Source of the DNA: Thiobacillus sp. | Lineage (GTDB): Bacteria > Pseudomonadota > Gammaproteobacteria > Burkholderiales > Thiobacillaceae | Assembly (NCBI GenBank): GCA_018263115.1 | Contig: JADFDC010000002.1 | Span: forward strand, 62,001 to 126,000 | Direction of reading: 5' to 3' | Length of the DNA stretch: 64,000 bases | Part shown: piece by piece, positions 56,914-58,770 of the stretch | How the letters are laid out: each line of letters starts with the position of its first letter | Position numbering within the stretch: position 1 is the first letter of the stretch | Position numbers and translations under genes: made by a program | Notes under the pieces: model-generated | Told to the model about the DNA's origin: nothing | The model's input: the letters and a program-made list of their open reading frames with translations, nothing else | Databases searched by the model: none

Positions 56914-56989
56914 GCCCCCGTAGCTCAGTGGATAGAGCATCCCCCTCCTAAGGGGAGGGTCACACGTTCGATTCGTGTCGGGGGCGCCA
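56914..56989 (+). tRNA. tRNA-Arg (anticodon CCT)
   Basis: GCCCCCG...CGGGGGC-GCCA, anticodon loop CTCCTAA, T arm ACGTTCGATTCGT, encoded CCA. Confidence 0.95.
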
Positions 56990-57107
56990 TCTGATGTTTC
57001 AAGTCTACCCCCAAGCAGATTGATGCCTGATAGCAACAGAATCAGGGATACTTCAATTGCCGTACTAACCCTAAGTGCTGAAATTCAATTCGAGCCTGGC
57101 CCGTTAA

Positions 57108-57737
57108 TTCCTCCAGATCAACCAGATTCGCGGTTTGCTTGCCGAATTCGGTCTCATCATGCCCAAAGGCCGCTATCCCGCCCAGCACGCCATCCCCGAT
57201 ATTCTGGAAGACGCAGAGAATGGCTTGCCCTCCCTGGCCCGGCGCCTGCTCCATGACGTCTGGCAACGCATCCTGCAACTCAACCAGCAGATCCTCGCCT
57301 ACGACCGCGAGATCGAAAGCCTGGCCAGGCTTTGCCCCAAGGCGCAAAGCCTGATGACGATTCCCGGCATCGGCAGCATCACCGCCACCGCGCTCCTCGC
57401 CAGCCTTGGCGACCCCAGACAATTTCACAACGGGCGGCAGCTTGCCGCCTGGCTGGGTCTCACGCCCCGGCAATACAGCACCGGCGGCAAGACGCGTCTT
57501 GGGCGCATCACCAAACAGGGTGACAAATACCTGCGCACGCTCTTGATCCACGGCACCCGCGCCGTGCTGGCCGCATTGAGAGACAAGCAGGACCGCATCA
57601 GCTGCTGGCTGCGCGAACTCGTTGCCCGGCGCGGCTACAAGCGGGCCGCAGTGGCCCTGGCAGCGAAGAACGCCCGCATCGTCTGGGCAATGCTGACAAG
57701 TGGCGAGGAATACCGCTCGCAAGCAGTTGCCGCATAA
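57108..57737 (+). pseudogene. IS110/IS1111-family transposase, C-terminal fragment
   Basis: LLAEFGLIMPKGRY..., LMTIPGIGSITATALLASLGDPRQFHNGRQLAAWLGLTPRQYSTGGKTRLGRITKQGDKYLRTLLIHGTRAVL; in-frame stop TAA at 57105-57107 just upstream. Confidence 0.88.
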
Positions 57738-57828
57738 GATCAAATCACGACAGGCAAAACCGTCTGCAAGGAAAGGAGCAAGCCCGCCGAATCACTGCCA
57801 AGGCAATGGATGACGAGAAGGTCAGACC

Positions 57829-57894
57829 GGGGATGTGAAAGTCTGTTTAGCTTAATGGCCAACAAGGCCGACTAACGAATGAGACGAACATCCC
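57829..57894 (+). ncRNA. Candidate seekRNA/bridge-RNA structure in the IS 3' non-coding region
   Basis: Nested pairing: GGGATGT/ACATCCC, GTCT/AGAC, GTTTAG/CTAAC (one bulge), GGCC-AACAA-GGCC. Confidence 0.5.
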
Positions 57895-58012
57895 AAGCGC
57901 ATTTTCATCAAGGCCAGGACACAGTCCGCAAACAGGCCGTATGTAGAGCCGCAGTCTAGTTCCAACTCAACACCCAGCGCACTTGCTTTGATAGGGAGAG
58001 TCCATGTAGTAG

Positions 58013-58089
58013 AGCTGACCAGCGCTGCGCGGCTTCATCGCGCAGCGTCCAGCGACCGAAGGGAGCGAGGTCGAGCGCCGGGTTAGCGG
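58013..58089 (-). other. Putative integron attC-like site downstream of the orphan cassette gene
   Basis: Minus: CGCTAACCCGGCGCTCGACC...GCTGCGCGATGAAGCCGCGCAGCGCTGGTCAGC; outer arms GCTAACC/GGTCAGC nearly complementary; overlaps the stop codon of the ORF. Confidence 0.5.
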
Positions 58090-58706
58090 AATACATTCTT
58101 TACAACCTGTTTGAATGACTCTAGGTAGTCGAGAAGCTGTAACACAGTGAGCAGTGAAGCCAGTGCTGTGACTACATAGATGCTCCCCTTAATCAAACGG
58201 CCAGCCAAGGACTCTTCTACCTTTTTGCGATTGAAACCCGCACGGCCAATGAGAACGAATGGAACGCGGGCAACCAAATCGAAAGCCAGACCGAGATAGA
58301 AAAACGGATTAATGGCCCGGAGAAGCGCTGGACGCTTATTGCTTTCGTAAATGCCAATCGAACGGTCAATAAAGTCCAGGAGATTGTTCGCGGTGATTTG
58401 AAACCGATGTAAGTTGAAGACATTCTGAACGAGGTCAATGTTCTGAATGTATCCACCAACAGCGGCAGGTGGAGTGTAGCGAATGGAAGGGTTAACGCCC
58501 GAATACAAGATGATGTCGTGGGTTTCATCCATCATTCGATTAATTTTTACTCTTGCTTCTTCAGCCTCTGGCTTCTCAATCCGCTCATTCACCATCCACT
58601 CGGCACGGCTGCTATTGAAGTACAGAATTACCAATGCCCGAAACTCGCCAAGCCTTTCAAGGCGCCGGTTGTTCTCCCACGGCAATATTCTTGTGTAGTA
58701 GTTCAC
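58083..58706 (-). CDS. Orphan hypothetical membrane protein, possible integron gene-cassette ORF
   Basis: 207-aa ORF with GTG start; hydrophobic C-terminal segments; GTTAGCGC core-like motif about 25 nt upstream. Confidence 0.65.
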   Translation of the reverse strand: MNYYTRILPWENNRRLERLGEFRALVILYFNSSRAEWMVNERIEKPEAEEARVKINRMMDETHDIILYSGVNPSIRYTPPAAVGGYIQNIDLVQNVFNLHRFQITANNLLDFIDRSIGIYESNKRPALLRAINPFFYLGLAFDLVARVPFVLIGRAGFNRKKVEESLAGRLIKGSIYVVTALASLLTVLQLLDYLESFKQVVKNVFR

Positions 58707-58770
58707 TTGATCAACCTTGGCCGAGTAGCGCTAACAGTTAATATACGGACAAAACTGTCCGGACGTTTTT

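What the first reader, a model, noticed from the sequence alone, without database searches (positions are those of the whole stretch)
57740..58010. Structured RNA candidate (seekRNA/bridge RNA) preserved downstream of a truncated IS1111/IS110 transposase
Seen directly: the transposase fragment is followed by about 280 bp with no sizeable ORF. Within it, 57830-57894 folds as nested helices GGGATGT/ACATCCC, GTCT/AGAC, GTTTAG/CTAAC with one bulge, then GGCC-AACAA-GGCC, separated by internal loops. Established knowledge: IS110-family recombinases use a non-coding RNA with internal guide loops, and in the IS1111 group this RNA lies 3' of the transposase gene. Inference: this segment is that RNA, retained although the N-terminal catalytic domain of the recombinase is gone. 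If so, it could still be expressed and used in trans by an intact copy elsewhere.
Basis: partly seen in the sequence, partly recalled or inferred. Interest (0 to 1): 0.75.

Follow-up and report, generated by a model that had tools for sequence, protein, structure and literature searches.

The report
Guide RNA in a broken transposon
The region is the leftover right half of a jumping gene (IS1111 type) that still carries an intact-looking guide RNA aimed at integron attC sites, and it sits in exactly such a site; this is a clear new example of a kind of RNA described in 2024, with no evidence that this broken copy still works.

Summary
Observation confirmed, identification supported. Window 57113-58008 is a 5'-truncated IS1111-family element of the attC-targeting type; about 490 of 1,400 bp, including the catalytic domain and left end, are gone. 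Its 3' non-coding region (57738-58008) contains the seekRNA/bridge RNA. A covariance model built from it and eight relatives finds the same RNA downstream of the transposase in 37 diverse IS1111 elements, with strong compensatory change (130 double-change cells vs 38 shuffled). Guide segments match each element's own target (16 non-redundant elements, 0/20,000 permutations), and a second, downstream domain matches each element's own ends (28 elements, 0/20,000). The window's guides match attC, and the element abuts an attC site. The last 77 bp recur exactly at another contig's end, in an attC behind an integron-integrase-like gene, so a second copy exists; whether it is intact is unknown. Preservation probably reflects recent truncation: the transposase fragment is undecayed too, and both left-end-only and right-end-only remnants occur in related genomes. 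New member of a known kind.

The parts
56914..56989 (+). tRNA-Arg (CCT); upstream synteny with same-genus genomes stops at its 3' end, so the IS remnant lies in a variable region next to it
57113..57737 (+). 3' part of an IS1111-type transposase gene, open to its own stop codon; homology to full-length elements starts at 57113 (position 494 of the 1,401-bp element in L007)
57738..58008 (+). 3' non-coding region of the element carrying the guide RNA and right end
57830..57894 (+). target-binding domain (seekRNA core): stem GGGATGT/ACATCCC, stem GTCT/AGAC, open internal loop, apical hairpin 57856-57870
57845..57855 (+). guide segment T (GTTTAGCTTAA): pairs with the top strand of the right target flank
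57871..57881 (+). guide segment B (ACTAACGAATG): same sense as the left target flank (CTAAC) plus the first bases of the IS left end (GAATG)
57897..57952 (+). donor-matching domain; TTCATCA (57904-57910) is near-complementary to the IS left end GAATGAA of relatives, TATGTAG (57940-57946) matches the IS right end ATGTA plus the first target base G
57993..58008 (+). right end: subterminal inverted repeat (to 58005) plus 3-bp extension GTA; the element ends at 58008
58009..58088 (-). attC site of a gene cassette, cut by the insertion just before its missing core-site half (cassette reads on the - strand)
   Evidence: sequence comparison with other attC sites of the genome
58083..58706 (-). cassette ORF, 207 aa, no Pfam or NCBIfam match

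Best explanation
It is the right-hand remnant of an attC-targeting IS1111-family insertion sequence, inserted at the usual position in the attC site of a gene cassette and later 5'-truncated, probably recently. The 3' non-coding region specifies the bridge/seek RNA. In the intact element the transposase binds this RNA; its first loop pairs with the two strands of the attC target (T with the right flank, B with the left flank) and its second domain pairs with the two joined IS ends of the circular donor, so that the enzyme recombines them at that position. Shown here: homology, conserved structure, guide-target and guide-end matching, and position in attC. Inferred from published work on relatives: transcription, processing and catalysis. 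This copy cannot make the catalytic domain and lacks a left end, so it is most likely inert; its RNA could in principle act with transposase from another copy.
For: Transposase family match. Full-length relatives of 1.3-1.4 kb with the same ends, left flank TAAC and attC right flanks. NCR alignment across diverse proteobacteria. Covariation: 9 sequences, 14 double-change cells vs 3.9 shuffled, 92.5% paired vs at most 46% when slid; 37 distinct sequences, 130 vs 38.0, score 0.595 vs 0.177, all 15 pairs with double changes (that alignment was fitted to the model). The window scores 105.7 bits against 113-114 for the closest relatives. Guide-target swap test in 16 non-redundant elements: T 5.94/8 own vs 3.33 (sd 0.31), B 4.25/6 vs 2.60 (sd 0.27), 0/20,000 permutations each. 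Donor-end test in 28 elements: left-end bases 45/56 vs 24.4, right-end extension plus first target base 110/112 vs 75.7, 0/20,000 each. Published precedent: seekRNA downstream of tnp, T before B, ISKpn4, ISPst6 and ISPa25 targeting attC (PMC11187229); bridge RNA in the right end of IS1111 elements (PMC11208160).
Against: No Rfam family matches. The whole 271-nt region is not unusually stable. The window T guide matches its own right flank only 5/8 exactly (7/8 with G-U), and the C19 flank 2/8 exactly (4/8 with G-U) in that fixed register, where that attC has one more base in the spacer. No expression data. PMC11187229 reports that the 82-nt short form alone suffices for ISEc11, so the role of the donor-matching domain is not settled.
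Confidence: 0.94

Rival explanations
1. The truncated copy is a retained, functional orphan guide RNA: expressed (for instance by read-through from the tRNA-Arg gene on the same strand) and used in trans by the transposase of another copy.
For: RNA stems, guides and donor-matching domain look intact. tRNA-Arg is on the same strand 124 bp upstream of the remnant with no plus-strand terminator-like site between them. A second copy of the identical right end lies in an attC of an integron contig. RNA-plus-right-end remnants without detectable transposase occur elsewhere (L101, L102, L109, L110). In PMC11187229 tnp and NCR supplied in trans move a mini IS.
Against: No promoter-like site. No intact transposase of this IS in the 96%-complete assembly. 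The transposase fragment is equally undecayed, so preservation needs no selection. Left-end-only remnants also occur often, so right-end remnants are not shown to be specially retained.
Confidence: 0.08
2. The hairpins are a chance fold or part of a DNA structure of the IS end, and no RNA acts.
For: The whole region is not more stable than shuffles, and there is no Rfam match.
Against: Compensatory changes at all 15 pairs over 37 sequences, loss of pairing when partners are slid, and guide segments that follow each element's target.
Confidence: 0.02
3. The 57830-57894 structure is a transcription terminator or attenuator of the transposase gene.
For: It is a hairpin 93 bp downstream of the stop codon.
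Against: No T-run follows it and the terminator scan finds nothing there; the large internal loop whose sequence follows the target does not fit a terminator.
Confidence: 0.01

Closest known systems
seekRNAs of ISKpn4, ISPst6 and ISPa25 (IS1111 family, attC-targeting; PMC11187229)
   Same: RNA downstream of tnp, T guide before B guide, target one end of attC sites, 7-bp and 3-bp terminal extensions around subterminal inverted repeats, similar RNA size class
   Different: The window copy is truncated, in a draft environmental-type genome, and its transposase fragment is about 62% identical to the best plasmid-borne relative listed. Direct sequence comparison with the named elements was not possible (ISfinder not held).
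Bridge RNAs of IS1111-group elements (PMC11208160)
   Same: RNA encoded in the right end; one loop for the target and a further part complementary to the donor ends
   Different: That study inspected six diverse elements, three per group; here the donor-end match is tested by permutation over 28 elements. Nothing in the window departs from their description.
IS621 bridge RNA (IS110 group; PMC11208160, PMC11208158)
   Same: Same RNA-guided dual-strand principle and related recombinase
   Different: IS110-group RNA lies upstream of the recombinase, guide order is reversed in the IS110 element tested in PMC11187229, and there are no long subterminal inverted repeats

Membership tests
IS1111-family insertion sequence | Transposase related to IS110/IS1111 family | tested here: met
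   NF033542 E=2.8e-60 over model positions 148-342; N-terminal DEDD domain absent in this copy, present in relatives L006-L008
IS1111-family insertion sequence | Subterminal inverted repeats with 7-bp left and 3-bp right extensions | tested here: met
   Right end present at 57993-58008; left end missing here but present with 12-bp repeats in L006, L007, L008, L034
IS1111-family insertion sequence | Long non-coding region downstream of tnp | tested here: met
   271 bp after the stop codon, no ORF of 50 aa or more
IS1111-attC group | Insertion at a fixed position of attC sites | tested here: met
   Right flanks at 58009 and on C19 are attC; all eight close relatives have left flank TAAC at the same base
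seekRNA / bridge RNA | Conserved secondary structure with compensatory changes | tested here: met
seekRNA / bridge RNA | Internal-loop segments complementary to both strands of the element's own target, top-strand match first | tested here: met
   window T 5/8 exact, 7/8 with G-U; B contains CTAAC, but this copy's own left flank is lost
seekRNA / bridge RNA | Segments matching the donor ends | tested here: met
   this copy's left end is absent, so for the window itself only the right-end match (ATGTAG) can be checked directly
seekRNA / bridge RNA | Transcribed and bound by the transposase | not testable with these tools
   needs RNA-seq or co-purification
Autonomous mobile element | Complete transposase and both ends | tested here: not met
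   homology starts at position 494 of the element

The most novel reading that the evidence does not exclude
Stand-alone guide-RNA remnants of IS1111-attC elements, such as this one, are transcribed from host promoters and supply guides in trans to transposases of other copies, so that truncated copies keep influencing where the family inserts.
Probability: 0.07. Interest if true: 0.6.

Novelty: new member of a known kind. Interest (0 to 1): 0.33.

Why it matters
It confirms from raw sequence an attC-targeting guide RNA outside the named elements and shows that comparative data alone give both the target guides and the donor-end matches of IS1111 RNAs. The donor-end result bears on a point PMC11187229 leaves open, the role of the longer RNA form; PMC11208160 had already proposed donor-binding bases there. 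As an individual locus it is an ordinary transposon remnant.

Tried and rejected
Rfam at gathering and relaxed thresholds: nothing relevant. Viral contigs: no relative. Plasmids by DNA with the NCR: no match. Unanchored guide search over the whole NCR gave only a weak excess; it became decisive once restricted to the loops defined by the covariance model. Tested whether RNA-plus-right-end remnants are specially retained: a right-end RNA model gave 20 hits in 13 genomes, several without detectable transposase, but a left-end model over genomes of the same order gave many hits with only the 5' part of the transposase, some of them cut by contig ends, so no retention bias can be claimed; the two models differ in sensitivity, so this is not a strict count. 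Tried to check the assembly k-mer idea with another contig end: no overlap there, so k=77 is only suggested by the 77-bp match ending exactly where the flanks diverge. L014's model hit lies upstream of tnp and is a false match; it was left out of the guide test, as were L005 (right flank not attC-like) and L041 (ends misplaced by the script).

Full report
What is in the sequence. Window 57135-57737 encodes the C-terminal 200 aa of an IS110/IS1111-type transposase. DNA homology to full-length relatives begins at 57113, which is position 494 of the 1,401-bp element in L007 (Thiobacillus MAG), and runs to 58008 at 77% identity. The left end and the catalytic domain are gone. After the stop codon 271 bp remain with no ORF of 50 aa or more.

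Ends and target. Relatives L005-L010, L034 and L069 share the left end GAATGA(A/T)ATGGACTC and right end GAGTCCATGTA; all eight left flanks end in TAAC, and most right flanks are attC-like, exceptions being for example L005. The window element therefore ends at 58008, and 58009 onward (GTAGAGCTGACC...) is an attC site read on the minus strand, belonging to the cassette ORF 58083-58706. The insertion point, just before the attC core half GTTRRRY, is read from the flanks of relatives and agrees with attC-targeting IS1111 elements (PMC11187229; the primary papers of Tetu and Holmes and of Post and Hall are not held, and what I say of them is from memory and from citations).

Structure. A 9-sequence alignment of the core (A3) gives two stems, a large open internal loop and an apical hairpin. 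Of 15 pairs, 8 show double changes, 14 cells against 3.9 in shuffles, and pairing drops from 92.5% to at most 46% when partners are slid. In the window itself the outer stem is GGGATGT/ACATCCC where close relatives have GGG-TGC/GCA-CCC, a compensated difference. A covariance model (R1) gives 38 hits at E<=0.02 over 57 sources, 37 of them directly downstream of tnp (positions compared); on that alignment there are 130 double-change cells against 38.0 and a covariation score of 0.595 against 0.177. That alignment was fitted to the model, so the A3 result is the cleaner one. Four plasmid-borne relatives also carry the RNA.

Guides. In relatives with other targets the loops hold other sequences, and these follow the targets. 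Examples: L063, T loop GTACAAAGCCA, right flank TGGCTTTGTG; L011, T loop GATCACTGCGA, right flank CGCAGTGACG; L089, B loop ATAGGTTGATG, left junction TAGGT|TGATG. Over 16 non-redundant elements the in-register match is 5.94/8 (T) and 4.25/6 (B), against 3.33 and 2.60 for permuted partners, with 0/20,000 permutations as high. They are mutually complementary because CTAAC-like sequence occurs on both sides of the insertion point in attC; the pairing is not part of the conserved structure.

Donor-matching domain. Downstream of the core, 57897-57952 forms a second hairpin domain. Its 5' side (TTCATCA) resembles the complement of the IS left extension (GAATGAA) and its 3' side (TATGTAG) matches the right end plus the first target base. 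Over 28 non-redundant elements the two variable left-end bases match in 45 of 56 cases against 24.4 permuted, and the right extension plus first target base in 110 of 112 against 75.7, with 0/20,000 permutations as high in both. PMC11208160 had proposed donor-binding bases in a multiloop of IS1111 RNAs from inspection; PMC11187229 calls the role of its longer RNA form not yet established and finds the short form sufficient for ISEc11.

Other copies. The 77 bp 57934-58010 recur at 100% at the end of contig C19, followed by a different attC and, further in, cassette ORFs and an integron-integrase-like gene. The match stops exactly where the flanks diverge, so it is a second insertion whose body is not in the assembly. 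No other transposase of this IS, and no left end, is found in the 58-contig, 96%-complete genome. Whether an intact copy exists cannot be told.

Is this copy kept for a function? The transposase fragment is an undisturbed open frame, as expected of a recent truncation, so the state of the RNA needs no special explanation. Right-end RNA remnants without detectable transposase occur in related genomes (L101, L102, L109, L110), but left-end-only remnants are common as well. No promoter-like sequence was found; read-through from tRNA-Arg on the same strand is possible but untested. I rate function of this copy as unlikely (about 0.07-0.08).

Verdict.

Noticed in passing
G000 contigs C19:28856-29800, C10:1542-2498, C41:10285-11253; attC sites near C22:151989: Three integron-integrase-like genes in one 2.3-Mb genome, with attC sites near the end of the window's own contig and on C19. 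All score below the family's curated cut-off and that family also matches all 14 control genomes, so the assignment rests on their high scores (302-406 bits).
   Followed up: partly
L101, L102, L109, L110 (order-level relatives): IS1111-type guide RNA plus right end with no transposase detectable nearby; in L102 and L109 the right end abuts attC-like sequence. Looks like repeated 5' truncation, not a separate element, since no left ends were found.
   Followed up: partly
56990-57112: Same-genus genomes are syntenic up to the tRNA-Arg 3' end and then diverge; the stretch to the IS holds AATTCGAGCCTGGCCCGTTAATT, whose 14-bp core occurs three times in this genome and which has similar tandem copies in L131. 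Possibly a small intergenic repeat.
   Followed up: partly
58706-58740: The cassette's upstream boundary reads GTTAGCG on the minus strand, complementary to CGCTAAC at the other end of the cassette: a seemingly lone gene cassette; no integrase was seen next to it.
   Followed up: no
57135-57737: The transposase fragment also matches the TIGR-Tas endonuclease model (NF052498) weakly, E=3.4e-5, well under its cut-off.
   Followed up: no
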